This document shows, piece by piece, positions 4,583 to 16,163 of a stretch of 21,862 nt of DNA; within the stretch, counting starts at the first letter, position 1; every line of letters starts with the position of its first letter. The notes under the pieces are model-generated. The model was given only the letters and a program-made list of their open reading frames with translations, searched no databases and was not told where the DNA came from. The stretch is taken from IMG/VR virus record IMGVR_UViG_3300034068_000083, positions 1 through 21,862 of that record; one strand, given 5' to 3'. The translations under genes were made by a program, and so were the position numbers. The stretch comes from a virus.

Positions 4583-4831
4583 TTAATCCTTACATTTATG
4601 ACACTTTTTATCTTCATCATGAGATAATTTAACACCAGCTAATAGACCAATAAATCCACCAACAATAGTTTGAAACGCTGGAGAAAGTAGTTTGAATATC
4701 TCTGCATTATCTACTTCTCTAGCCCATAAGCCAAGAACAAATGCAGCCATCATACCTAGTACTGATAAGCACAGAGTAGATGCAACCATAAAGGTAACAT
4801 TATATGTTAGCTTAGCTTTAATATCTTCCAT
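4583..4831 (-). CDS. Small two-helix membrane protein, candidate holin (82 aa)
   Basis: I place the start at MEDIKAKLTYN (4831), because AAGGAG stands 6 bases upstream. A longer in-frame reading from 4984 would overlap the previous gene and has no comparable ribosome site. Two membrane helices are visible: about 10-35 (YNVTFMVASTLCLSVLGMMA...) and about 48-68 (AFQTIVGGFIGLLAGVKL). They are joined by a short charged loop (AREVDNAE). The C-terminal tail is highly charged and ends HDEDKKCHKCKD. Size, two helices and a charged tail are what class II holins look like. The Cys-His-Lys-Cys at the end is uncommon for a holin. The neighbours are the 79-aa coiled-coil protein and the GTA-type holin-like gene. 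The family is not recognised by name. Confidence 0.72.
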   Translation of the reverse strand: MEDIKAKLTYNVTFMVASTLCLSVLGMMAAFVLGLWAREVDNAEIFKLLSPAFQTIVGGFIGLLAGVKLSHDEDKKCHKCKD

Positions 4832-4841
4832 AGGTTTCTCC

Positions 4842-5081
4842 TTATGCGTAGGCATCAAAGGTTGGGTTATTGATTTGTCTCTCGACAATAAGTTCTTTAT
4901 TTTTAATGTTATATAATTCCAACTGGTAATCACGAAATGCTTTGGTAACTCTTTCAATCTCTCTAAGAAGTTCTCTTTCGACATTTAATACTTCCATTTT
5001 CTTGTTATATAATTTTAATTGTGTGTCTGAATAAGTAGGGTGAACTACTGGGTAAAGTTTATCATAGCTGTATAGCTTCAT
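4842..5081 (-). CDS. Small coiled-coil protein in lysis cassette, unknown function (79 aa)
   Basis: A 79-aa soluble protein starting MKLYSYDKLYPVVHPTYS. Residues about 22-68 are a charged, heptad-like helix (KLYNKKMEVLNVERELLREI and onward), so it probably forms a coiled coil. It has no signal peptide, membrane helix or cysteine. The ATG overlaps the stop of the upstream secreted-protein gene as ATGA, with GGGAAAAGAA as ribosome site, so the two are probably translated together. I do not recognise the family. Position within the lysis cassette suggests a lysis accessory role, but nothing in the protein itself proves that. Confidence 0.75.
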   Translation of the reverse strand: MKLYSYDKLYPVVHPTYSDTQLKLYNKKMEVLNVERELLREIERVTKAFRDYQLELYNIKNKELIVERQINNPTFDAYA

Positions 5082-5626: not shown

Positions 5627-6985
5627 TTAAACCACTAAAGAACTGCTAGTATTAAATACATGATAAGTAAATCCGCCAGTTGTAACAATAGTTCCACCCG
5701 TTGCTTTTGGAATACCTGAATATCTAACAATTACAATTCCTGAACCACCTGAGCCACCTGCAAAATTACCAGATTGGTGATCTGCTGCACCTCCACCACC
5801 ACCTCCAGTATTAGCAGTTGCATTATTACCATTACCACCATTAGCACCATTACCCGTAAAACCTGATGCACCCCCATGTGAACCAGCACCCGCAGTTCCA
5901 TATTCAGAACCTCCACCCCCACCGCCAGCATACCCTCCACTAACACCAGTAGAAGTAGCAGAAGCCCAAGTTGAATAACCAGTGTCTCCTGCACCGCCCG
6001 CAGCTCCATTTATTGAAGATGCATTTGAACCCGCACCACCAGCTCCACCGCCACCGCCACCGCCTTGAGAAGTACCATCATTAGAGTAGGTGCCGCCACT
6101 TCCACCTGAATATCCTTGTCCAGCAGTTCCTGATCCGGGGCTAGAAGCGGTTCCCCCACCTCCACCTGAACCACCATTTCCACCAGTGTTATTAGTACCT
6201 GCTGGATAAGTACCTCCAGCTCCGCCACCTATAGCTGTTTGGGCATTAAAGGTTGAATTAGAACCGTTATTGCCCCTAGAAGCAAACCCAGCAATACCTG
6301 TTCCTCCTGCACCTATTACAACAGGATATATTGAACTAGGTAAAACTGTAAAGGTATTATAAATTCGTCCACCAGCCCCGCCTCCACCGCCCATTGTTGA
6401 ATTGTTAGCTGCACCACCACCACTTCCTCCACCTGCAATTAATAAATATTCGGCAAGAAAAGATGGTGTATCAGAAAAAGTAATCCAGTTTGATGTTACT
6501 GTATCATACCATTCTGGATAACCAGTTGTAGTGTTCATTCGGGTCATACCTGAAGTAGGACTTGCAGGACGTTGTGCAGTAGTTCCAACGGGTAATTTAA
6601 AGTACCCTGTAGACGTATTATTAGTATCCGAAACAGTTGTAGCAGTTGCAACACCACCACTAGCATTAACAGTTTGATTGGGCCATGTACCAGTAACAGT
6701 AACATTAGTTCCTGCAACAATACTAGGCGTTGTTGTTCCTGTTCCACCGTTAGCTACAGGTAACGTTCCCGTAACACCAGTGGTTAATGGAAGTCCTGTA
6801 GCATTTGTTAATGTAACACTTGTTGGAGTTCCTAACACAGGTGTTACAAGGGTAGGTGATGTAGATAATACCGCATTACCTGTTCCTGTTGATGTTGTTG
6901 TTCCTGACCCACCGCCAGCAGCAGTAAGAACACCATTTGAATCTATGTTATCTGCTATCTTAGATAAATTACGTGGGATACTCAT
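5627..6985 (-). CDS. Polyglycine adhesin-like tail fibre protein, array copy 4 (452 aa)
   Basis: The start has a perfect AAGGAGG 4 bases upstream. Residues about 1-130 are Thr/Gly/Ser-rich with a GTLPVANGGTGTTTPS motif common in phage fibres. Residues about 132-165 are the shared entry module (TAQRPASPTSGMTRMNTTTG then YPEWY). From about 180 (YLLIAGGGSGGGAAN) to 415 the chain is dominated by Gly runs (GGGGGAGG, GGNGGSGGGGG, GGYAGGGGGG). It closes with SGIVIVRYSG and the exit strand GGFTYHVFNTSSSLVV. Polyglycine-II lattices of this kind form the receptor-binding tips of some phage fibres (for example gp38 of S16-type phages), so a receptor-contact role is inferred. It has the longest N-terminal extension of the four paralogues and the most diverged C-terminal strand. 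The next gene downstream belongs to the lysis cassette. Confidence 0.82.
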   Translation of the reverse strand: MSIPRNLSKIADNIDSNGVLTAAGGGSGTTTSTGTGNAVLSTSPTLVTPVLGTPTSVTLTNATGLPLTTGVTGTLPVANGGTGTTTPSIVAGTNVTVTGTWPNQTVNASGGVATATTVSDTNNTSTGYFKLPVGTTAQRPASPTSGMTRMNTTTGYPEWYDTVTSNWITFSDTPSFLAEYLLIAGGGSGGGAANNSTMGGGGGAGGRIYNTFTVLPSSIYPVVIGAGGTGIAGFASRGNNGSNSTFNAQTAIGGGAGGTYPAGTNNTGGNGGSGGGGGTASSPGSGTAGQGYSGGSGGTYSNDGTSQGGGGGGGAGGAGSNASSINGAAGGAGDTGYSTWASATSTGVSGGYAGGGGGGSEYGTAGAGSHGGASGFTGNGANGGNGNNATANTGGGGGGAADHQSGNFAGGSGGSGIVIVRYSGIPKATGGTIVTTGGFTYHVFNTSSSLVV

Positions 6986-7022
6986 GTAGCCTCCTTGAAT
7001 TTAATTTTCATATTATTTCCTT

Positions 7023-7991
7023 TTAGGCTACAAAAGTACCTGATGAAGTGAATGTATGGTAAGTGTAACCGCCAGAAGAAGTTATTGTTCCACCTAAACC
7101 TATTTGAGATCCAAGATAACGTATAATAACAAGACCAGAGCCACCTGTTCCTCCTGAACCAGCAGGACCACCGCCTTTTCCACCACCTCCACCACCTGTA
7201 TTAGTAGTGCCGTTAGTAGCAGAACCACCATTAGTAGCTGTTCCAGCGCCACCCCCACCAGCACCACCTGCTCCTGGAGTATTACCTTCTGCAGCACCAC
7301 CGCCACCGCCAGCATAATATCCACTTGAACCTGTTGATGTAGCGGATGCCCAAGTAGAATAAGAATTAGAGCCAACACCTCCTGTACCACCTGCTGAACC
7401 CGCTAAGCCAGCACCACCTGCTCCACCCCCGCCTCCAGCAATACGAGGTGTAGTTTGACCAGTACCACCTGCAAAACCTTGTCCAGAAATACCAGAACCA
7501 CCAGCGCCACCGTTTTCACCAGCAGAACCACCCCCTGAGCCTCCATTACCACCAGCCGCTGATCCTTGGTTGCCTGCACCGTAGCCACCACCTGTTGCAA
7601 TTAAAGAGTTAATAGAAGAATTATTACCATTTGAGCCATTTCCAGAGACAGCTCCGCTTGCAATCCCTGCTCCACCAGCACCTACAGTAATAGTATAAGA
7701 AGATCCTGATGTAACTGAAGTAGAGGTTGTATATAGCAAACCTCCGGCACCCCCTCCCCCTGCTGAGTCTCTTCCACCACCACCACCTCCTCCAGCAATT
7801 ATTAATGAATCAATAGAGTATGCAGTAGTATTAGAAAAAGGAATCCAAGCTGAAGTTGCAGAGCTGTACCACTCAGGATTACCTATAGTAGTATTAAATC
7901 CAAACTGACCAGCACTAGGACTTGATGGTCGTCCGGCAGTGGTCCAAGATGCGGGTGTTGTACCCTTTGTACCATCAAGTGTAATAGGCAT
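7023..7991 (-). CDS. Polyglycine adhesin-like tail fibre protein, array copy 3 (322 aa)
   Basis: The shortest of the four glycine-rich paralogues. AAGGAG precedes the ATG by 5 bases. It begins MPITLDGTKGTTPASWTTAG, then a variant entry module (GRPSSPSAGQFGFNTTIGN, PEWYSSATSAWIPF). A glycine-rich body from about residue 62 (SLIIAGGGGGGG) runs to LVIIRYLGS near 287. The exit strand is GGYTYHTFTSSGTFVA. Its entry module is the most different of the set (GQFGFNTT instead of GMTRFNTT). The amino terminus resembles those of many marine phage fibres (xxITLDGTKG). I infer a trimeric receptor-binding tip with a polyglycine core. It follows the 117-aa MAHFAKV protein by 9 bases. Confidence 0.82.
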   Translation of the reverse strand: MPITLDGTKGTTPASWTTAGRPSSPSAGQFGFNTTIGNPEWYSSATSAWIPFSNTTAYSIDSLIIAGGGGGGGRDSAGGGGAGGLLYTTSTSVTSGSSYTITVGAGGAGIASGAVSGNGSNGNNSSINSLIATGGGYGAGNQGSAAGGNGGSGGGSAGENGGAGGSGISGQGFAGGTGQTTPRIAGGGGGAGGAGLAGSAGGTGGVGSNSYSTWASATSTGSSGYYAGGGGGAAEGNTPGAGGAGGGGAGTATNGGSATNGTTNTGGGGGGKGGGPAGSGGTGGSGLVIIRYLGSQIGLGGTITSSGGYTYHTFTSSGTFVA

Positions 7992-8000
7992 ATTGTCTCC

Positions 8001-8354
8001 TTAAGGTGCTACGACTTCAACCCACGCTGTTGTAGGTTCATCCCAACGGTATACCTTGTTATCCGATGGATAAGGTGTTGGTGCATTCCACAAGCATGTA
8101 TCTTCATTAAGAGTCCATGAAGCAAACGGTTGTGGAGGAATAAATGCGTCTCTAGTACGGTCATATGTATAACCAATACCCGCATAATTCTTACGGAGAG
8201 GTGTACCGCCATTGGCATGTACTCCTCCGTGTGTGTTGTATGATGTTTGAATCCACTCACCCGGACTTGTGTCTACGAATGTTGTGAAAAATTCTGGTTC
8301 AGCAACGATTACTTGCGTTACTTTTCCGTCTGTTACTTTTGCAAAATGTGCCAT
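8001..8354 (-). CDS. Conserved 'MAHFAKV' phage protein inserted in the adhesin array (117 aa)
   Basis: The start is placed at 8354 (MAHFAKVTDGKVTQVIVAEP), where AAGGAAAC stands upstream. An in-frame ATG at 8381 would overlap the upstream adhesin stop and has poor support. The protein is small, soluble and aromatic-rich, with ordered motifs GEWIQTSYNTHGGVH, LRKNYAGIGYTYDRTRDAFI, PPQPFASWTLNEDTCLWNAP and YRWDEPTTAWVEV. I recall close relatives near fibre genes in cyanophages and many aquatic phages, generally without function. Unlike its neighbours it has no glycine repeats. Possible roles, by position only, are a fibre assembly chaperone (as Tfa or gp38 are for other phages) or a small virion component. 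Confidence 0.85.
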   Translation of the reverse strand: MAHFAKVTDGKVTQVIVAEPEFFTTFVDTSPGEWIQTSYNTHGGVHANGGTPLRKNYAGIGYTYDRTRDAFIPPQPFASWTLNEDTCLWNAPTPYPSDNKVYRWDEPTTAWVEVVAP

Positions 8355-8373
8355 GTTATTTGTTTCCTTAATG

Positions 8374-8421
8374 TTAAGCAATGTATGTACCTGAAGATGT
8401 AAATGTGTGGTATGTGTAACC
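8374..8421. repeat. 48-bp direct repeat, copy A (3' end of adhesin copy 2)
   Basis: Matches 9454-9501 at 46 of 48 positions, including the stop codon and the coding sequence for the exit strand GGYTYHTFTSSGTYIA. The two repeats are in the same orientation and exactly 1080 bp apart, so they bracket one whole adhesin gene unit. Confidence 0.9.
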
Positions 8422-9444
8422 GCCTACAAAAGTTACTGTTCCACCAGTGCCTTTTTGTGTTCCAAAATATCTAAGAATTATTATTCCTGAACCACCTGCA
8501 TACCCAATAGCAGTTTGTCCACCGCCTCCACCACCACCTGTGTTTACAGATCCTGTAGTTCCATTATTATTAGTTGAACCAGTACCACCACCACCAGTAC
8601 CACCAGCACCTCCTAAATTACCACCACCGCCACCGCCTCCAGCATAGAATGTTCCAAGTGATAACCAATTTAAGCCAGCACCTCCTACACCACCAGTGCC
8701 ATTTGTAACGCCATTACCATTATTACCAACAGCACTTGCGCCTCCTCCACCGCCACCTGCTTCAAAAGCACCGGGTACGTGACGACCTGTACCACCAGCA
8801 AAACCTTGACCAGACGTTCCAGAGCCACCAGCATAAGTTGCAGAATTTCCAATAGAACCACCACCACCTCCAGAACCTCCAGAATTACCAACTAAGCCAG
8901 CACCACCACCTCCACCTCCACCTATAGCAGTAACAACAGAAGCAATTACACTGTTTGAACCATTTAATCCGCTAAGACTTCCAGAGCTTCCCGCACCACC
9001 TGCACCTACAGTTAAGTTGTAAGAAGTAGTAGGTGATGCTTCAAATATTGTTGTTAAATATCCCCCTGCACCACCGCCTCCACCTGCGTTATCTCCATCT
9101 CCCCCACCACCGCCACCTGCTACAACTAAAAATTCAATAGAATAAGTAGGAGGGGTATAAGTAGCTAACCAAGAAGAAGAAGATGAAACGTAATATTCAA
9201 CATAACCAAGAGTAGTATTAAATCTTGTCATACCATTAACAGGGTTTGCTGGTCTTTGAGCAGTAGTACCTACTGGGATAGTTAAAGCACCCGTAGAATT
9301 AAATGTTGGATTTTGTGATGTACTTATAGTAAGCGCAGTTGTCCCATTAGTCTGTAACTCAAGGACACCACTAGAGTCTGCACTTGTTTTAAGTCCTGCA
9401 GAACCGGACACAACGCCATTGTCTGCGTTTATTATTGTTGTCAT
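8374..9444 (-). CDS. Polyglycine adhesin-like tail fibre protein, array copy 2 (356 aa)
   Basis: AAGGACATAAC precedes the ATG. The N terminus MTTIINADNGVVSGSAGLKT, with a following LELQTNGTTALTI, is a common marine-phage fibre head. The entry module spans about 56-90 (GALTIPVGTTAQRPANPVNG, then MTRFNTTLGYVEYY). The glycine-rich body begins at about 105 (EFLVVAGGGGGG), is interrupted by LTVGAGGAGSSGSL and AIGGGGGGG, and ends with GSGIIILRYFG. The exit strand is GGYTYHTFTSSGTYIA. It is most similar to the next upstream copy (9454-10515): entry modules match at 82 of 95 bases and the 3' ends match over 48 bp. I infer a receptor-binding tip protein and recent duplication or gene conversion with that neighbour. 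Confidence 0.84.
   Translation of the reverse strand: MTTIINADNGVVSGSAGLKTSADSSGVLELQTNGTTALTISTSQNPTFNSTGALTIPVGTTAQRPANPVNGMTRFNTTLGYVEYYVSSSSSWLATYTPPTYSIEFLVVAGGGGGGDGDNAGGGGGAGGYLTTIFEASPTTSYNLTVGAGGAGSSGSLSGLNGSNSVIASVVTAIGGGGGGGAGLVGNSGGSGGGGGSIGNSATYAGGSGTSGQGFAGGTGRHVPGAFEAGGGGGGASAVGNNGNGVTNGTGGVGGAGLNWLSLGTFYAGGGGGGGNLGGAGGTGGGGTGSTNNNGTTGSVNTGGGGGGGQTAIGYAGGSGIIILRYFGTQKGTGGTVTFVGGYTYHTFTSSGTYIA
9202..9296. repeat. Entry-module repeat, copy in adhesin 2
   Basis: These 95 bases match 10312-10406 at about 82 positions with no gaps. They encode the TAQRP...GMTRFNTTLGY module. A weaker copy lies near 6520-6595 in adhesin copy 4. Confidence 0.85.
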
Positions 9445-9453
9445 GTTATGTCC

Positions 9454-9501
9454 TTATGCAATGTATGTGCCTGAAGATGTAAATGTGTGGTATGTGTAAC
9501 C
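9454..9501. repeat. 48-bp direct repeat, copy B (3' end of adhesin copy 1)
   Basis: Partner of 8374-8421; only two substitutions separate them. The corresponding ends of the other two adhesin genes (7023 and 5627) encode the same strand but have diverged more at DNA level. Confidence 0.9.
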
Positions 9502-10515
9502 ACCACTAGTAGAAACTGTTCCACCAGTTCCTCTTTGTGCTCCTGAATAACGAACAATAACAATTCCGTATCCACCATTACCTCCGTTATACACAGTAGC
9601 ATTAGCAGCAGTTCCAGCTCCGCCGCCGCCGCCACCTGTATTAGCAGTTCCGTTACCCCCAGAGCCTGGACCACCGTTAAGAGTTCCAGCACCACCTGTG
9701 CCTCCACCACCATTACCACCACTAGCAACAACATTACCAACATAGCTACCACCACCACCACCTCCAGCGTAGTAAGTGCTATTTAGCCATTGAAGACCAA
9801 CTCCACCACTAGTTGCTTCTGCACTAGAAACATTAATTGCAGCAGCTCCTGCGCCTCCACCACCAGCGGCAGTACCATTAACCGAATTTCCATTACCACC
9901 TGCATTACCTTGACCAGCAGTACCAGAACCACCAGTACCTCCACTATATACTCCACCACCTCCAGAGCCACCTGAAATACCATTTACCGTAACAAATGTT
10001 CCACCACCACCTCCACCAAGTGCGGCTGTAAATGAAGAAAAAGTTGTGTTAGTTCCATTAGAACCACGAGTTCCAGAAGAACTTCCGCCAGCACCTCCAG
10101 CTCCTACAATTGCAACAAGCCCAGCTCCAGAAGTAACTGAATAAGCTATTCCTGAAATATAGCCACCAGCTCCGCCACCACCGCCTGTGTATCCATTGGC
10201 GGTTGATGCGCCTCCGCCACCTCCACCAGCAACAATTAAATAATCAATATAATAAGAAGGTCCATCTGCAATAGCTAACCAGCTAGAAATTGAAGAACTC
10301 CACCATTCAATATACCCAAGTGTAGTATTAAATCTAGTCATTCCATTAGCAGGGCTTGCAGGTCTTTGAGCAGTAGTTCCAATAGGAATAGTTAAAGCAC
10401 CAGTAGCACTAACAGTCATAATACCACTATCAGGAGTCAAAACAATATTACCACTAGTATCCCCAGTAGTAACTAACGCTGTAGTACTTGTAGTACCAGC
10501 TCTAATTTCACTCAT
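9454..10515 (-). CDS. Polyglycine adhesin-like tail fibre protein, array copy 1 (353 aa)
   Basis: The first of four glycine-rich genes after the main fibre, with AAGGAG before the ATG. It begins MSEIRAGTTSTTALVTTGDT, then GALTIPIGTTAQRPASPANG and MTRFNTTLGYIEWW (the entry module). The glycine-rich body starts near residue 86 (DYLIVAGGGGGGAS), carries AIVGAGGAGG and many GGGGG/GGSGG runs, ends with YGIVIVRYSG, and closes with GGYTYHTFTSSGTYIA. A very high glycine content with sparse aromatic or hydrophobic residues is expected for polyglycine-II sandwich tips. Sharing of both ends with copy 2 while the N-terminal 30 residues differ suggests modular exchange. Role inferred: virion adhesin. Confidence 0.84.
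   Translation of the reverse strand: MSEIRAGTTSTTALVTTGDTSGNIVLTPDSGIMTVSATGALTIPIGTTAQRPASPANGMTRFNTTLGYIEWWSSSISSWLAIADGPSYYIDYLIVAGGGGGGASTANGYTGGGGGAGGYISGIAYSVTSGAGLVAIVGAGGAGGSSSGTRGSNGTNTTFSSFTAALGGGGGGTFVTVNGISGGSGGGGVYSGGTGGSGTAGQGNAGGNGNSVNGTAAGGGGAGAAAINVSSAEATSGGVGLQWLNSTYYAGGGGGGSYVGNVVASGGNGGGGTGGAGTLNGGPGSGGNGTANTGGGGGGAGTAANATVYNGGNGGYGIVIVRYSGAQRGTGGTVSTSGGYTYHTFTSSGTYIA
10312..10406. repeat. Entry-module repeat, copy in adhesin 1
   Basis: Partner of 9202-9296 in the neighbouring adhesin gene, same orientation, 1110 bp apart. With the 48-bp repeats it gives the two genes homologous sequence at both ends of the glycine-rich body. Confidence 0.85.
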
Positions 10516-10525
10516 ATATTTCTCC

Positions 10526-13402
10526 TTAAATAATTACCCATCGTTGTCCACTAGCTACAGTCACAGAGTAACCACTCTGAATAGTTACTGTACCAACAGA
10601 GAAACCATTTGTTCCGGATGAGATTGTTTGATTAGTTGATACTGAATCAGCGTTAAATGTAATTGGTCCACCACCAGTAGACACAACACCCCATGATGCT
10701 GTTGTACCATCTGTTGTAAGATATTTACCTGCTTGACTTGTTTGAGAAGGTAATGATACAGGCGCTGGTAACCATGCTCCTGCTGTACCGTTTGATGTAA
10801 GTACATAACCGTTTGTCCCACCAAGAACTCCATTAGCCGCTATCTGACCTACATTAAGAACATTGTATACAATTGCTTCAACAATATCGTTTAATGCTGC
10901 AGCTGAAGTAAGAACAAAAGTTGTTCCATTAGATGCAGTATAGTCAGTACTATCCAACAACACACCATTAAGATACACTTGCAATAATGCTGATGTATAG
11001 TTTACTGTAAATGTAGTTTGACCTGACGTAGCAATAAATGATGTACGTGTGTAAGTCTGTGTAGGTAATGTTACTGGTGACCAAGAGGCAGTTGTACCGT
11101 CTGTCGTAAGGTATTTGCCTGATTGACTTGTTTGTGAAGGTAAACTATCAACAACTGCCCATGATGAGTTTGTTCCATCTGTCTTAAGATACTTATTAGC
11201 ATTACTTGTTTGGCTAGGTGCAAGAGCATTAAATGCTGTGTTAGCAGTTGTTTGACCTGTACCACCGTTTGCAATAGCTACTGTGCCTGAAACATTACCT
11301 GCTATTAAAGCAGATTGTGCTGTTTTAGTCCACAAGCTTGTTGAGCTATTGTATACAAGTGTATCACCGTTTGTAGGTGATTGAGCAGACACATTGTGTA
11401 GCTCATCCATCTCATAACCATTTTGAATCTTAACTTCAACAGTACCTTGTGTAGCATGACTACGGGTAACAATACCTACATACACCAAGTGAATAGGTGC
11501 ATATGGTTTAATGTTGGTAAAGGCTCCAGCAGTAGTCCCGCTAAGATACAGTTGAGCGCCATCAGCATAAGCAGAAGTATTTATATTACTTACAACACCA
11601 ATAATAACTACATAACCATTATTGTTGTTAGTAATGTCTGCTTGTATAACACCAAATGTTTGAGCGGAAGTAGCGTCACCTGTAGCAATAGCTTTAGTAA
11701 CAAGAGCTTTGTTACCTGATGCACCATTAATATATACAACAGTACCTTTAGTAAGAGTTGCACCAGTCTCATTACGTACTTGAGCAATCAAAGTAGCAGC
11801 ACTACCAGCAACACCTACAGACAAATCTCGTGTTGTACCTGTTGTGCTAATAACAACACTACCATCTATTGATGTTAATGTTTGAATTGCTGTGTCTGCT
11901 GTTGCACCTTGAGCTGATGTAGCATATGCTGTACTATCAGTAGTAGCCGCAGTACCAAGACCAAGAGATGTACGACCTGTAGTCGCTACAAGGCCTGTTG
12001 CTCCACCATCCCACTTGAGACGGTCTGCAAAAGCAGTATCAGCATTAGTACCTTGTGCGGCAGTAGCAAACGAAGATGTTGCTTGAGTAGCCGCAGAACC
12101 TAGTCCTGAAATATCAGCATAAGCTAGTGTAACATTACCTGTACGACCCGCAACAGAAGTAACTAAGTTAGTTTGGTCAATCTTCTGCCATGTTGTACCA
12201 TTATAAATAGCCCAGTCACCAACAACCCAGTCAGTCACGCCATCAAGGTTAGTGTTACCAGAAACTGATACTACATAGTATGATCCTTGAGTACCTACTC
12301 CTGAGGTAAGTGTTGGTGTGTTAGTTGATGCATTCCATGAACCATTATAAATCAAACCACCAGTAAGACTTACCCATGTAGTATCATAGTTAGTACTACT
12401 TACTTTAGAAAGAACTTGCCCTGCTGTACCGCCAGTAGCAATACCCGGAGTATTCATCCATGCAGAGCCTGTATATACCTTCATGATGTTTGTACTTGAA
12501 TTAAAGTACATTGCACCTGTCAATAAGGCATTACCATCATTGTCTACTGTTGGGTCTGTAGCCTTAGCACCAAGATAACGATCATCAAAAGAATCAAAAG
12601 ATGCAGCCGCAGATGCCGCACTTGCTGTTGCACTTGTTGCACTATTAGCCGCACTTGTAGCTGACCCTGCAGAATTATTAGCAGAAGTCTGTGAGTTAGA
12701 TGCTGAATTAGCCGCATTAGTAGCACTTGTACTTGCATTACTTGCAAAAGTAGAAGCACTGCTAGACGAATTAGCCGCATTAGTTGCGCTAGTAGCCGCA
12801 TTTGTTTCTGATGTAGCTGCTGCAACAGCAGAGTTATTAGCATTAGTTGCTGAAGATGCAGATGCTGAAGCACTTCCTGCTGAAGATATCGCTGAATTAG
12901 AAGCATTATTAGCAAAGGTACTTGCTGAACTTGCTGAACTAGCCGCATTAGTAGCAGAAGTACTAGCCGCATTAGCTGAAGAAGCCGCATTAGTGGCGCT
13001 AGTAGAAGCATTAGATGCAGAGCTAGCTGCTGAAGATGCAGAATTAGTTGCAGATGTAGCTGAATTAGTTGCACTAGTAGCTGAAGCAGTTGCACTAGTA
13101 GACGCATTAGTTGCGGTAGTTGCACTACTTGAAGCGTTATTAGCTGATGTAAGGGCATTAGCCGCACTAACAGAAGCCGCACTTGCCGCATTTTGAGCTT
13201 GAGTTACTGCAGTACCAATACTTGCAAGAGATCCTGCAGCCGCAGTAGCAGAGTTAGCCGCAGATGTTGCGCTGAGAGCTGCTGCAGCCGCACTTGCCGC
13301 AGCCGCACTAGGGTATTGAGCTGACGTTACTTCATCAAAGTTATCGTACTCACCACCGTCAGACATATTTCCGGTTGTTCCCGGATTTAATTGATATGCC
13401 AT
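10526..13402 (-). CDS. Main tail fibre protein with long Ala/Ser/Asn-rich shaft (958 aa)
   Basis: The start MAYQLNPGTTGNMSDGGEYD has AAGGAGG 6 bases upstream. Residues 1-30 probably attach to the virion. Residues about 33-267 are almost only Ala, Ser, Thr and Asn in quasi-heptads (SATSAANSATAAAGS type), expected for a trimeric coiled-coil shaft. FDDRYLGAKATDP with GAMYFNSSTNIMKVYTGSAW follows at about 268-325. A mixed beta region comes next (GGLIYNGSWNASTNTP, VAGRTGNVTLAYADI). Three copies of a unit like SQTSQSGKYLTTDGTTASW lie near residues 727, 754 and 884. The C terminus (SGYSVTVASGQRWVII) is a familiar fibre ending in aquatic phages. It lies directly after the adaptor gene and before the adhesin array. 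I infer the main receptor-seeking fibre. No enzymatic motif is visible. Confidence 0.86.
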   Translation of the reverse strand: MAYQLNPGTTGNMSDGGEYDNFDEVTSAQYPSAAAASAAAAALSATSAANSATAAAGSLASIGTAVTQAQNAASAASVSAANALTSANNASSSATTATNASTSATASATSATNSATSATNSASSAASSASNASTSATNAASSANAASTSATNAASSASSASTFANNASNSAISSAGSASASASSATNANNSAVAAATSETNAATSATNAANSSSSASTFASNASTSATNAANSASNSQTSANNSAGSATSAANSATSATASAASAAASFDSFDDRYLGAKATDPTVDNDGNALLTGAMYFNSSTNIMKVYTGSAWMNTPGIATGGTAGQVLSKVSSTNYDTTWVSLTGGLIYNGSWNASTNTPTLTSGVGTQGSYYVVSVSGNTNLDGVTDWVVGDWAIYNGTTWQKIDQTNLVTSVAGRTGNVTLAYADISGLGSAATQATSSFATAAQGTNADTAFADRLKWDGGATGLVATTGRTSLGLGTAATTDSTAYATSAQGATADTAIQTLTSIDGSVVISTTGTTRDLSVGVAGSAATLIAQVRNETGATLTKGTVVYINGASGNKALVTKAIATGDATSAQTFGVIQADITNNNNGYVVIIGVVSNINTSAYADGAQLYLSGTTAGAFTNIKPYAPIHLVYVGIVTRSHATQGTVEVKIQNGYEMDELHNVSAQSPTNGDTLVYNSSTSLWTKTAQSALIAGNVSGTVAIANGGTGQTTANTAFNALAPSQTSNANKYLKTDGTNSSWAVVDSLPSQTSQSGKYLTTDGTTASWSPVTLPTQTYTRTSFIATSGQTTFTVNYTSALLQVYLNGVLLDSTDYTASNGTTFVLTSAAALNDIVEAIVYNVLNVGQIAANGVLGGTNGYVLTSNGTAGAWLPAPVSLPSQTSQAGKYLTTDGTTASWGVVSTGGGPITFNADSVSTNQTISSGTNGFSVGTVTIQSGYSVTVASGQRWVII
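12601..13306 (-). repeat. Degenerate Ala/Ser/Asn codon repeats encoding the fibre shaft
   Basis: About 700 bases of imperfect short repeats of GCN, AGT/TCT and AAT codons inside the 958-aa fibre gene. They produce quasi-heptads of the form A-A-x-S-A-x-x. Long readings in other frames here are by-products of the repeat. Confidence 0.8.
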
Positions 13403-13412
13403 TTATACCTCC

Positions 13413-14327
13413 TTAGATGAGTCCATTTGTATTGAAGTTAACTTGTACGTTACCTCCAGAAGCCCTACGCCACTTTTCTTCTTTGTTCAATGAGAATACA
13501 TTCTCAGCAAACTTCTTTTCGTATCTCTGTTCCATCTTTTCGTCAAACAAATAGGAACCTAAATTATATAACGCACCCCATATAAGAAGCCGTTCATTTT
13601 CATCTCTTAACCAGTTAGGTACTTCTTGACCCACATAATACTTTGTTGTTACTGTTGGGTTGTAAGCTTGAGCTTCAGCCAATGTAGCAAAACAACGCAT
13701 AATAGAATTAGCTGTTGAGAAGTACAATGGTATATCTGTGTTAACACCAGTTAATGTTAGGTATGGTTGAGCCGCATCAGACAATCCAATAACATAGTTA
13801 ACAGGAATAACAGAGTATGTAGCATTCAAAGCAGGAAGTCTACGATAATAACTGATCTCTACTTGTGCACCAACTGCTAGTTGTGGATGGATAAATACTT
13901 TACCATCTTTCCACATCCAGTTATATACAGAATATTTTTCACTGTATAAGTCAAAGAAAGTACGTGAGTCTGTCACTTCATTAAATACTTTACTGACATT
14001 TGAAGGGAATGTAGAGTATGATGTACCAATGTTGTCTTGTGCTAGTGTACGTATATAAGTAAATTGAATTAAATCTTCTGGAATATCAAAAGATGTATAA
14101 GCATTTCCATAAGGAAGTCCTGCGCTATTGTCTCCTACATTATCTGCTGATTCAACAACATATGTAATAGTAGTTTCAAGTGGAGGAATACGTAGTACTC
14201 GATAGCATTCATCGGCAGAATAAGCTAGGCAATCTTGTATGACGCTATTTGGAATAGTATTCACTTCGGGTTTGTTTGACCAGTCACGTACTTTGTCTAC
14301 GAGTGCGTCATATCTTGGGGTTGGCAT
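13413..14327 (-). CDS. Head-tail adaptor protein, SU10 adaptor-like (304 aa)
   Basis: This 304-aa protein begins MPTPRYDALVDKVRDWSNKP after an AGGAGAATAAT site. The N-terminal helical region has the pattern of podoviral adaptors (LVDKVRDWSNKPEVNTIPNS, then IQDCLAYSADECYRVLRIPPL). Further features are FDIPEDLIQFTYIR, a central YSVYNWMWKDGKVFIHPQL, and a late helical domain LLIWGALYNLGSYLFDEKME followed by RYEKKFAENVFSLNKE. This is the arrangement of the SU10/phiEco32-type adaptor, which forms a ring below the portal. The position after capsid genes and before fibres fits. Family assignment rests on remembered motifs and context, not a search. Confidence 0.78.
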   Translation of the reverse strand: MPTPRYDALVDKVRDWSNKPEVNTIPNSVIQDCLAYSADECYRVLRIPPLETTITYVVESADNVGDNSAGLPYGNAYTSFDIPEDLIQFTYIRTLAQDNIGTSYSTFPSNVSKVFNEVTDSRTFFDLYSEKYSVYNWMWKDGKVFIHPQLAVGAQVEISYYRRLPALNATYSVIPVNYVIGLSDAAQPYLTLTGVNTDIPLYFSTANSIMRCFATLAEAQAYNPTVTTKYYVGQEVPNWLRDENERLLIWGALYNLGSYLFDEKMEQRYEKKFAENVFSLNKEEKWRRASGGNVQVNFNTNGLI

Positions 14328-14346
14328 AGATTATTCTCCTGTAAAA

Positions 14347-14670
14347 TCAGAATGCCTTTACGTTACTTGTTTTAAGTAAAGGATAGTCTGTTTCAATTAT
14401 TTGTTTTAATCGTCTTAGGTTTGCAGGTTCCTGCATGAATGTCTCTGAATGAATATCAAGACCGTATTTAGTTAGGATATCAATAGCTACAATATCAGGG
14501 ATAATTGCAAATGAACGGTATTGCCGACCGTTAGCGGCAAATGAATCTAATTCTCTTTGTTGTGCGGCATAATCTTTGTATGCACTTACATCTTGTACTA
14601 GTTGAAAATCTTTTTCATCAGTTTTAACTTGGAAACTATTTTTGTTTCCGTCTTGTGATAGAAAGCCCAT
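14347..14670 (-). CDS. Small conserved phage protein between capsid and adaptor genes (107 aa)
   Basis: Starts MGFLSQDGNKNSFQVKTDEK after AGAGGACAC. The first 40 residues are polar. The rest looks helical with the striking segment FAIIPDIVAIDILTKYGLDI, then ETFMQEPANLRRLKQIIETD and YPLLKTSNV. There is no membrane or signal segment. I have the impression of relatives at the same place in other aquatic podoviruses but cannot name a family. The position suggests a virion or head-assembly component. It is unlikely to be the adaptor, which follows it. Confidence 0.75.
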   Translation of the reverse strand: MGFLSQDGNKNSFQVKTDEKDFQLVQDVSAYKDYAAQQRELDSFAANGRQYRSFAIIPDIVAIDILTKYGLDIHSETFMQEPANLRRLKQIIETDYPLLKTSNVKAF

Positions 14671-14684
14671 GTGTCCTCTTGTAT

Positions 14685-14972
14685 TTAGTTCGTCATATAG
14701 TTGCTGAAAGCACCGTCATTGGTGAAACAACCATATTCATATTTTGTGTTAGCACCTGTAAAAGCGGGGGTAGCCGCAACCACAATAGCTCCAGCTGTCG
14801 CATTAGCACCATCATAATATTTTACCTGAGTAATTTTTCCACGAATAACTTTGGGTGCGGCATAGTCAGAGCCAGCATCAAATGTGTCTGCGGATGTAGC
14901 AACATTTACTACATGATTATCAGGAATGTATTGACGAGTACCATCTGTAGCGGTAATCCGTAGAAATTCCAT
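14685..14972 (-). CDS. Small protein directly after the capsid gene, possible decoration or head protein (95 aa)
   Basis: Starts MEFLRITATDGTRQYIPDNH after AAAGGAACACAA. It is short and predicted beta-rich, with VIRGKITQVKYYDGANATAG and an Ala/Thr-rich turn region, ending GCFTNDGAFSNYMTN. There is no signal or membrane segment. It is the first gene after the intrinsic terminator that follows the capsid gene, so its expression should depend on read-through or an unseen promoter. Small beta-rich proteins next to capsid genes are often decoration or head-completion proteins, and that is the inference here. The family is not recognised. Confidence 0.72.
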   Translation of the reverse strand: MEFLRITATDGTRQYIPDNHVVNVATSADTFDAGSDYAAPKVIRGKITQVKYYDGANATAGAIVVAATPAFTGANTKYEYGCFTNDGAFSNYMTN

Positions 14973-14987
14973 TTGTGTTCCTTTTGA

Positions 14988-15030
14988 TAAATAAAAAAGG
15001 GAAGCAAGGTTTCCCTCACCTCCCTTTTAT
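14988..15030 (-). terminator. Intrinsic terminator after the major capsid gene
   Basis: Read on the minus strand, AAAAGGGA (15028-15021) pairs with TCCCTTTT (15002-14995), with further pairing inside (GGT with ACC). A run of T residues follows (TTTTTTATTT, 14998-14989). It lies between the capsid stop at 15048 and the next start at 14972, in one of the longer gaps of the window. Stem plus T-run is the standard Rho-independent form. Confidence 0.85.
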
Positions 15031-15047
15031 AGGTTAGTTAGCTACTA

Positions 15048-16163
15048 TTAAGCGCCAGACAAACCGAAGATCATACCGCAACCCTTAGGATTACGGCACT
15101 CAAGTGTACCTTCTTCAACGATCTGACCGATGATAGAGTCACCAAGCTGACCGAGGTCAACTTCTTGCAGAGGACGCAAGCTAGCGTAGCTGAACCACAT
15201 TGGGTCATATACGAATGCTGTAAAGTTAGCTGTGTTATCCAGACCAGAAACGGCAGTATTAGAAATACCCATTACGTAGTTAGGAACAACCATGATGTCA
15301 CCGAAGTCGGACATGTAGATTTCAACTGACTGACGGAGTTTACCATCAGCGTCAATGTTTCGACGAACGTTACCATCACCAGCATTAGAAGTAGTAGAAC
15401 CTGCAGACTGAGCCTTAGCAGAGAACACACGACGATTTGCAGGAGACAACATCAACTTAGTAGCTTTACCACCGTTTTCGTAGATGCCTTGCATAACTGT
15501 GTCAACGTGTGACAGAGCCAAAGAGACTTTGTCAGCAGAAGTAACAGTAGCAAATGTACCGCAAACACCACCACCTGGATTAGTAGGAGCAGTGTATTCA
15601 CCGGGAGTAGTCAACACGTTCAATGCAGTAGCAGGAGTTGTGCTAGCGGCAGTGTAGTTGATCCAAGACTGATAGCCACCGAAAGTACGGGTGCCAGAGC
15701 CGTTAGAAGACTTCCAACCGTTAGTCAAATCAAACTCAACGTCACGACGAAGTTCGGTACCACGCTTTTTGAGCTGGTAAGCGTATTCATCAGCAACACC
15801 TGCTTGGTCAACAGCACGTTTAGTGCCAGTAACTGTAACAGTCTTAGAGTTGATTTGTGTGTAGTTACCCAAACGTGTACGGAAGGGTTCAGCAGCTTGA
15901 GCCGCATTTTGTGTAGAATATGATACACCCTCGGCTACAGGAGCAGAAGTTGGGGCTGCCAACTCGTCTGTTTGCCATTCGTGAAACACAGCCGTAGCTT
16001 TAGTCTTGCCGATAGACGACAAGAAAGGTGTCTCATCACGAGAGATCATTGAAATAAAATTCGCTAAGTCTTCACGCTCACCAGCGTTGACAGCGTTACC
16101 CGTAGCGGCAGAGCTACGAGCGGCAGCCTTAGGGCCACCTGTTGCAAAAGTTTGTCCAGCCAT
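15048..16163 (-). CDS. Major capsid protein, SU10/DUF5309 family (371 aa)
   Basis: Starts MAGQTFATGGPKAAARSSAA after AAAGGAAAATAAC. The segment EDLANFISMISRDETPFLSS, then IGKTKATAVFHEWQTDELAA (about 30-70), is the hallmark I know from the SU10 major capsid family (formerly DUF5309), an HK97-fold shell protein. Further matching motifs are INSKTVTVTGTKRAVDQAGV, ELRRDVEFDLTNG, GGKATKLMLSPANRRVFSA and YMSDFGDIMVVPNYVM. The length fits the family. No separate protease gene and no N-terminal delta domain are seen, so a separate scaffold (16189-17328) should direct assembly. SU10 and phiEco32 relatives build elongated C3-type heads, but elongation cannot be read from this sequence. Confidence 0.93.
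   Translation of the reverse strand: MAGQTFATGGPKAAARSSAATGNAVNAGEREDLANFISMISRDETPFLSSIGKTKATAVFHEWQTDELAAPTSAPVAEGVSYSTQNAAQAAEPFRTRLGNYTQINSKTVTVTGTKRAVDQAGVADEYAYQLKKRGTELRRDVEFDLTNGWKSSNGSGTRTFGGYQSWINYTAASTTPATALNVLTTPGEYTAPTNPGGGVCGTFATVTSADKVSLALSHVDTVMQGIYENGGKATKLMLSPANRRVFSAKAQSAGSTTSNAGDGNVRRNIDADGKLRQSVEIYMSDFGDIMVVPNYVMGISNTAVSGLDNTANFTAFVYDPMWFSYASLRPLQEVDLGQLGDSIIGQIVEEGTLECRNPKGCGMIFGLSGA

What the first reader, a model, noticed from the sequence alone, without database searches (positions are those of the whole stretch)
5627..10515. Tandem array of four paralogous polyglycine adhesins behind a single fibre gene
Four genes (copies 1-4) share the same plan: a variable N-terminal head, an entry module (TAQRP...NTTxGYxEW), a glycine-run body, a hydrophobic strand (GIVIVRYSG type) and an exit strand (GGYTYHTFTSSGTYIA type). 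Heads differ strongly while later modules are shared. One phage carrying four such tips in series could mount several adhesins together (broad host range), or keep spare tips for exchange. Polyglycine tips are known in gp38 of T-even relatives, usually as a single copy. A four-copy cassette in an SU10-type podovirus is unusual to me, and I know of no description of it.
Basis: partly seen in the sequence, partly recalled or inferred. Interest (0 to 1): 0.8.

Follow-up and report, generated by a model that had tools for sequence, protein, structure and literature searches.

The report
Slot-addressed set of polyglycine phage adhesins
A short-tailed aquatic phage carries four glycine-rich attachment proteins in a row, each with its own fixed 'socket plug' at the front and a freely exchanged tip behind it, so the phage probably displays four different grips on bacteria at once and updates them by recombination.

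Summary
Four intact Gly_rich_2 (PF21722) genes, c1-c4, lie in tandem behind a 958-aa fibre in an SU10-type podovirus. It also missed a 52-aa C-terminal cap on the fibre.

Relatives turn the interpretation around. A sister phage (L005; 96.7% DNA identity upstream) has the same genes in the same order. Its heads match slot by slot, but all four glycine bodies are replaced down to scrambled synonymous sites. In eight phages with a second array type, heads identify the slot 29/29 times. Two natural chimeras join one slot's head to another slot's body. The same head types carry non-glycine tips in SU10 relatives. The order h1-h2-sm-h3 recurs in a phage without SU10 markers, behind a collagen-like fibre sharing only its last 52 residues with this one.

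Best reading: heads are docking addresses, bodies are exchangeable receptor-binding tips, sm is probably their chaperone (weak fold match to the Pam3 complex). Arrays of 2-5 are common in uncultivated phages but rare in this clade (2 of 23 records). Closest concept: Ackermannviridae branched tailspikes. A new variant of a known kind.

The parts
10526..13402 (-). 958-aa tail fibre (SU10 gp12-like position, directly after the adaptor gene)
   Evidence: PHROG tail fibre families over residues 128-316; N-terminal 268 aa 96% and C-terminal 200 aa 98% identical to L005
10529..10684 (-). fibre C-terminal cap, residues 907-958; candidate docking platform for the c1 head
   Evidence: Only region shared (71%) with the otherwise unrelated collagen-like fibre of L150; C-terminal in 61/62 ORFs that carry it; a cap-bearing ORF lies upstream of the array in 7/7 arrays with an h1-type first head vs 6/75 others
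9454..10515 (-). c1, 353-aa glycine-rich adhesin (head 10378-10515, entry 10231-10377, glycine body 9553-10230, exit 9457-9552)
   Evidence: PF21722 E 9e-22; AF2 pLDDT 89; head 89% vs body 50% identical to L005 c1
8374..9444 (-). c2, 356-aa glycine-rich adhesin (head 9268-9444, entry 9121-9267, body 8473-9120, exit 8377-8472)
   Evidence: PF21722 E 4e-23; head 78% vs body 56% to L005 c2; same head type on non-glycine fibres in L011 and L014
8001..8354 (-). sm, 117-aa partner protein (phrog_7759), probable adhesin chaperone
   Evidence: PHROG E 2e-33, function unknown; directly 3' of a glycine adhesin gene in 66/77 independently fetched loci; AF2 pLDDT 95; top PDB fold hit 7ypx_a, the Pam3 complex, taken here as chaperone gp25, weak; SD present
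7023..7991 (-). c3, 322-aa glycine-rich adhesin (head 7944-7991, entry 7797-7943, body 7122-7796, exit 7026-7121)
   Evidence: PF21722 E 6e-20; head 100% vs body 49% to L005 c3
5627..6985 (-). c4, 452-aa glycine-rich adhesin (head plus shaft-like linker 6584-6985, entry 6437-6583, body 5726-6436, exit 5630-5725)
   Evidence: PF21722 E 1e-15; first 24 aa 22/24 identical to L005, body 45%; same head on a 103-aa non-glycine protein in L019
13413..14327 (-). SU10-type adaptor protein, left border of the variable receptor-binding locus
   Evidence: PF24175 E 1e-7; 100% identical in L005
4583..5619 (-). small genes including a holin-like gene (4583-4984), right border of the variable locus
   Evidence: 83-96% identical in L005 and retained in several relatives; holin PHROG hit weak, E 0.011

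Best explanation
The locus is a multi-slot receptor-binding set. The 958-aa fibre (presumably trimeric) hangs from the adaptor and ends in a 52-aa cap. Four polyglycine adhesins are made from one tight run of genes. Each has a short slot-specific N-terminal head that fixes where it docks: c1 most likely on or next to the fibre cap, the others on further sites or on each other. Behind the head come an entry hinge and a glycine lattice whose inter-glycine loops bind receptors. The small protein sm most likely chaperones folding of the glycine-rich bodies. All four are displayed together, giving several receptor specificities at once. The phage updates specificity by homologous recombination that replaces the body and keeps the head and the junction to the next gene. 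Shown here: anatomy, slot-specific head conservation, body replacement at all four slots, head portability between tip types and backbones, sm-adhesin linkage. Inferred: docking sites, simultaneous display, sm as chaperone, receptor binding.
For: Window vs sister L005: 96.7% DNA identity over 4.46 kb upstream, 89.6% downstream, with islands of identity mainly at the junctions exit(n)+head(n+1) and around sm. Same-slot heads 0.89/0.78/1.00/22 of 24, other slots 0.19-0.62; bodies 0.45-0.56, no better than between paralogs; codons of shared glycines in bodies match mostly in 15-58% of cases, so bodies were replaced, not point-mutated. Eight phages of a second array type: head same-slot 0.60 vs other-slot 0.24, nearest neighbour same slot 29/29, permutation 0/2000. 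Natural chimeras: L246 slot-2 head on a slot-4-type body, L265 slot-4 head on a slot-1/3-type body. The h2 and h4 head types and an h1-like head carry non-glycine tips in SU10 relatives L010, L011, L014, L019. h1-h2-sm-h3 order in L150, which lacks SU10 markers. Glycine columns conserved (H 0.88) and loops variable (H 2.06). c1 fold hits Bxb1 tail tip (E 1.4e-4) and Pam3 fibre (E 2e-3); sm's top PDB hit is a chain of the same Pam3 entry. sm 3' of an adhesin gene in 66/77 loci vs 64/1312 background ORFs. Fibre, c1, c2, sm, c3 and c4 have an SD.
Against: No virion data; no host known. The sm fold match is weak (E 0.58, TM 0.34) and the sm profile finds no Pam3 chaperone sequence. The AF2 model is a monomer with the head at low confidence (46-58), so docking is unseen. 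The cap-head association is phylogenetically non-independent, and caps also occur in loci whose next gene is not a glycine adhesin. In the second array type bodies are mostly slot-conserved too (24/29), so exchange is not equally frequent everywhere. Only one sister genome carries this exact four-slot set.
Confidence: 0.68

Rival explanations
1. Spare-tip cassette: one copy is mounted and the others are reserve tips that replace it by recombination within the genome.
For: Copies share entry and exit modules and short DNA identities (85% over 108 bp, 81% over 124 bp) that could serve recombination; natural head/body chimeras exist.
Against: Each gene is full-length with its own start, SD and distinct conserved head; slot order is kept in 8 phages of another array type. 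Silent cassettes would not need four different conserved heads.
Confidence: 0.12
2. Series fibre: the four proteins stack end to end into one long composite fibre, each head binding the previous protein's exit strand.
For: Junctions exit(n)+head(n+1) are the conserved DNA blocks; the C-terminal strand is slot-specific in the second array type (26/29); order is conserved.
Against: Polyglycine lattices are distal receptor-binding tips in Pam3 gp24 and S16/PP01 gp38 (PMC9608196, PMC12892980); the exits of c1-c3 are nearly the same in one genome, so they would not specify order here; conserved DNA at junctions is also what tip exchange needs.
Confidence: 0.12
3. Rapid diversification in place (positive selection or a diversity-generating retroelement) rather than exchange.
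For: Loops between glycine runs are hypervariable.
Against: No reverse transcriptase in 11 records, window included (records are partial). Synonymous positions of unchanged glycines are also scrambled while adjacent heads are near-identical.
Confidence: 0.05
4. A variant of the sm part only, compatible with the main explanation: sm is not a chaperone but a displayed cap or accessory adhesin on the glycine tips.
For: Its adjacency would be the same; Mu Tfa stays on the fibre tip (discussed in PMC10579305); well-folded beta-rich single-domain model.
Against: The weak fold match is to the Pam3 complex, whose chaperone gp25 was not detected in mature Pam3 virions (PMC9608196).
Confidence: 0.3

Closest known systems
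Ackermannviridae branched tailspike complex (CBA120/S117 TSP1-4; PMC11414711, PMC8825819)
   Same: Up to four paralogous receptor-binding proteins in one gene cluster, conserved position-specific N-terminal docking domains, exchangeable C-terminal receptor modules
   Different: Beta-helix tailspikes with XD/TD domains; here short heads, polyglycine lattices, a dedicated small partner gene and an SU10-type podovirus. Only the ~46-aa entry module shows similarity (TSP3, 37% identity)
Pam3 fibre gp24 with chaperone gp25 (PDB 7ypx; PMC9608196)
   Same: Glycine-rich distal domain with conserved glycine motifs and variable loops; small chaperone partner; c1 and sm each match a chain of this entry
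   Different: Single fibre gene in a myovirus; alpha-helical N-terminus and TNF-like domain; no sequence relation of sm to gp25 found
T-even gp38 adhesin (S16, PP01; PMC12892980)
   Same: Polyglycine lattice with hypervariable receptor loops between glycine motifs
   Different: gp38 sits on the gp37 trimer and is a single gene there; not recovered by sequence profile or Foldseek
Host-recognition (metaviromic) islands of marine phages (PMC3909814)
   Same: Hypervariable receptor-binding genes; tail fibre C-termini vary while N-termini are conserved
   Different: Slot-addressed multi-adhesin arrays and head portability were not found in the passages read
Roseobacter phage CRP-143 gp39-gp42 (OR420748)
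   Same: Three glycine adhesin genes around an sm gene; annotated hypothetical
   Different: Autographiviridae backbone; heads differ

Membership tests
Pfam PF21722 Gly_rich_2 | Profile match over the curated cut-off (24.3 bits) | tested here: met
   c1-c4 58.7-83.2 bits over nearly the whole model
T-even gp38 adhesin | Sequence or fold relation to gp38 | tested here: not met
   No gp38 chain among PDB profile hits or 23 Foldseek hits
T-even gp38 adhesin | Attaches to the tip of the fibre trimer | not testable with these tools
   Only co-occurrence of fibre cap and c1-type head
Pam3 gp24-like glycine-rich fibre | Distal glycine lattice with conserved glycine motifs and variable loops | tested here: met
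   Entropy 0.88 in glycine vs 2.06 in non-glycine body columns; Foldseek E 2e-3
Pam3 gp24-like glycine-rich fibre | N-terminal helical docking domain and TNF-like domain | tested here: not met
   AF2 model: low-confidence head, no long N-terminal helix; so not filed as a member
Tail fibre assembly chaperone (gp25/Tfa) for sm | Shared fold or sequence | tested here: inconclusive
   Top PDB hit 7ypx_a but E 0.58, TMq 0.34; no sequence hit; no Pfam tail-assembly hit in 89 members
Tail fibre assembly chaperone (gp25/Tfa) for sm | Gene next to its fibre gene | tested here: met
   66/77 loci directly 3' of a glycine adhesin gene
Tail fibre assembly chaperone (gp25/Tfa) for sm | Needed for fibre folding | not testable with these tools
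   Needs co-expression
Branched multi-RBP complex (Ackermannviridae type) | Position-specific conserved N-termini with exchangeable receptor modules | tested here: met
Branched multi-RBP complex (Ackermannviridae type) | XD (gp10-like) and TD domains | tested here: not met
   No Pfam or NCBIfam hit for such domains in c1-c4; only a marginal Foldseek hit to TSP4-N (E 1.3-9). Not filed as a member

The most novel reading that the evidence does not exclude
A portable, socket-addressed adhesin module (fibre cap + slot heads + sm) is shared by unrelated aquatic phages. It lets one virion carry several polyglycine or other tips, each slot updated independently by recombination, with sm (phrog_7759) being a dedicated chaperone family of polyglycine adhesins.
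Probability: 0.4. Interest if true: 0.78.

Novelty: new variant of a known kind. Interest (0 to 1): 0.6.

Why it matters
If right, it gives a sequence-readable rule for multi-receptor phages: the head names the slot, the body names the specificity. Receptor-binding tips could then be recognised and counted in uncultivated phages where proteins are now called hypothetical, and the sm gene marks them. It also assigns a likely role to a widespread unknown family and makes the question whether environmental phages display several adhesins at once directly testable in an existing isolate (CRP-143).

Tried and rejected
Megablast of the window against 50,697 phage records found nothing. tblastn of c1 against phages found only the entry module in Nitrincola phage 1M3-16. 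A search for donors of the c1 body found only a 31-aa local match, in a glycine protein of a different kind, so donors of the exchanged bodies are unknown. DGR rejected. Membership in gp38 rejected. The glycine-rich 335-aa gene of L016 is a different protein, not hit by PF21722. NCBIfam has no model for any of these proteins. Hits of sm in bacterial genomes are nine MAG contigs, probably phage DNA. Literature searches found no description of tandem polyglycine adhesin arrays. The Melnitz paper, searched by term rather than read whole, showed only a general mention of tail fibres. Searches failed; one search gave its group statistics before failing on the window/L005 part, which redid. The 'with/without Gly loci' tally was faulty and is not used; one search replaces it.
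Full report
What is there. The window is an entire 21,862-bp virus record, probably a fragment, from an SU10-type podovirus: portal PF23899 E 2e-126, capsid PF17236 E 7e-75, adaptor PF24175 E 1e-7. All relevant genes are on the minus strand. After the adaptor come the 958-aa fibre, c1, c2, sm, c3, c4, then small genes including a holin-like one and lysozyme. Gaps between genes are 7 to 37 bp, and fibre, c1, c2, sm, c3 and c4 each have a Shine-Dalgarno-like sequence. c1-c4 are all Gly_rich_2 proteins. With low-complexity masking they still align through the entry module, so common descent is not an artefact of glycine.

What relatives show. Adaptor and capsid scans gave about 145 relative loci. 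Between the adaptor and the lysis genes these phages carry very different receptor-binding genes. Of 23 SU10-type records scanned with PF21722 besides the array-bearing outsiders, the window and L005 have four matches, two have one and the rest have none. Some of these records are partial. So within this clade the array is rare. Outside it, tandem arrays of 2-5 such genes turned up in many contigs reached through the glycine or the sm query, and in the isolate CRP-143 (three genes around sm).

Heads are addresses, bodies are exchanged. Window and L005 are sisters: 96.7% over 4.46 kb upstream and 89.6% downstream. Within the array, long DNA identity survives only at the fibre end plus c1 head, at exit(n)+head(n+1) junctions, and around sm. 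Head protein identity is 0.89, 0.78 and 1.00 for slots 1-3, and 22 of the first 24 residues for slot 4. Between slots it is 0.19-0.62. Bodies are 0.45-0.56 identical, no more than between paralogs; with glycines removed 0.32-0.40 in the same slot, 0.26-0.36 across slots of the two phages and 0.27-0.41 between paralogs. At aligned glycines in bodies, the codon is the same in mostly 15-58% of cases, against 90-99% nucleotide identity in the first 40 codons of c1-c3. Point mutation under selection would have left those synonymous sites alone, so the bodies were replaced in blocks, at all four slots.

An independent test. Eight contigs (L225, L228, L242, L246, L263, L265, L267, L282) hold another array type with four slots in one order. 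The first 24 residues are 0.60 identical within a slot and 0.24 between slots; the nearest neighbour in another phage is the same slot 29 of 29 times; 0 of 2000 within-phage label shuffles reach the observed value. Bodies separate less (0.55 against 0.50, 24/29), and C-terminal strands do separate (26/29). Two bodies sit behind the 'wrong' head: L246 slot 2 with a slot-4-type double body, L265 slot 4 with a slot-1/3-type body. Further domains are added in the same frame: LamG in L242 and L225 slot 2, and FN3 in the fifth gene of L242.

Heads travel. In SU10 relatives the h2 head type sits on 600- and 496-aa non-glycine proteins (L011, L014) and the h4 head on a 103-aa protein (L019). The gene 9 bp after the capped fibre in L010, L011 and L014 has an h1-like head (by eye) and a non-glycine body. 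L150 has the order h1 (0.94), h2 (0.75), sm, h3 (0.83), with non-glycine body identity 0.34-0.45. It has no SU10 capsid or portal match (partial record) and a collagen-like fibre. That fibre matches the window fibre only in its last 52 residues, at 71%. This cap is C-terminal in 61 of 62 ORFs. A cap-bearing ORF lies within 1.5 kb upstream of the array in 7/7 arrays whose first head is h1-type and in 6/75 others, Fisher 4.5e-7; these are not phylogenetically independent. This nominates the cap as docking partner of the c1 head.

The tip and its helper. The AF2 model of c1 with 56 sequences has pLDDT 89, with a poorly predicted head. Foldseek finds a chain of the mycobacteriophage Bxb1 tail tip (E 1.4e-4), the Pam3 fibre 7ypx_A (2e-3) and, for the entry module, CBA120 TSP3. 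Glycine columns in the body are conserved (mean entropy 0.88) and the residues between are variable (2.06), as described for Pam3 gp24 and gp38 (PMC9608196, PMC12892980). sm belongs to phrog_7759, unknown function. Fetched by its own sequence, it lies directly 3' of a glycine adhesin gene in 66 of 77 loci, against 64 of 1312 background ORFs. Its model is confident (pLDDT 95), and its best PDB match is 7ypx_a, from the same Pam3 entry; I take chain a to be the chaperone gp25 from its length (162 residues) and the paper. The match is weak (E 0.58, TM 0.34), and sequence profiles do not connect them. Two separate fold searches landing on two chains of one complex, plus the gene linkage, make a chaperone role the leading but unproven reading.

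Mechanism. Shown: slot-specific heads, block replacement of bodies, portability of heads, sm linkage. Inferred from SU10 structure (PMC9509320) and from Ackermannviridae (PMC11414711): the adaptor holds the fibres, heads dock adhesins at fixed places, several specificities are carried at once, and homologous recombination through conserved 5' ends swaps tips. Not shown: presence in virions, docking, receptors.

Novelty. Multi-adhesin sets with conserved docking N-termini are known in Ackermannviridae; single polyglycine tips are known in T-even and Pam3 phages. A slot-addressed array of polyglycine adhesins with its own small partner, shared across unrelated phages, was not found in the literature searched; the library holds open-access papers only. 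I rate it a new variant of a known kind.

Noticed in passing
window 8001-8354: sm (phrog_7759) is a widespread phage family of unknown function, found also in cyanophages, pelagiphages, roseophages and Melnitz, and nearly always tied to a glycine-rich adhesin gene.
   Followed up: yes
window 10529-10684: 52-aa fibre C-terminal cap module (ending SGYSVTVASGQRWVII), at the C-terminus of many otherwise unrelated phage fibres and small proteins.
   Followed up: partly
L242 (335-kb contig): A jumbo-size contig with 11 Gly_rich_2 matches in two clusters (about 162-177 kb and 193-200 kb), some with LamG or FN3 domains inserted.
   Followed up: partly
L029 8617-11611: A pair of genes (fibre N-terminal piece plus 108-aa gene) occurs twice in tandem, and sm also occurs twice nearby.
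   Followed up: no
window 13413-16163: Backbone looks mosaic: the capsid protein is 98-99% identical to several contigs whose adaptor is only 73-88% identical, while the adaptor is 100% identical to L005.
   Followed up: no
L005 9299-10504 and window 10526-13402: The c4 linker of L005 carries the LPSQTSQSGKYLTTDGT-type shaft repeats of the fibre, pointing to exchange between fibre shaft and c4 head.
   Followed up: no
L016 14506-15513: Another 335-aa, 30% glycine protein directly behind the fibre, not matched by PF21722; a different glycine-rich tip type at the same place.
   Followed up: no
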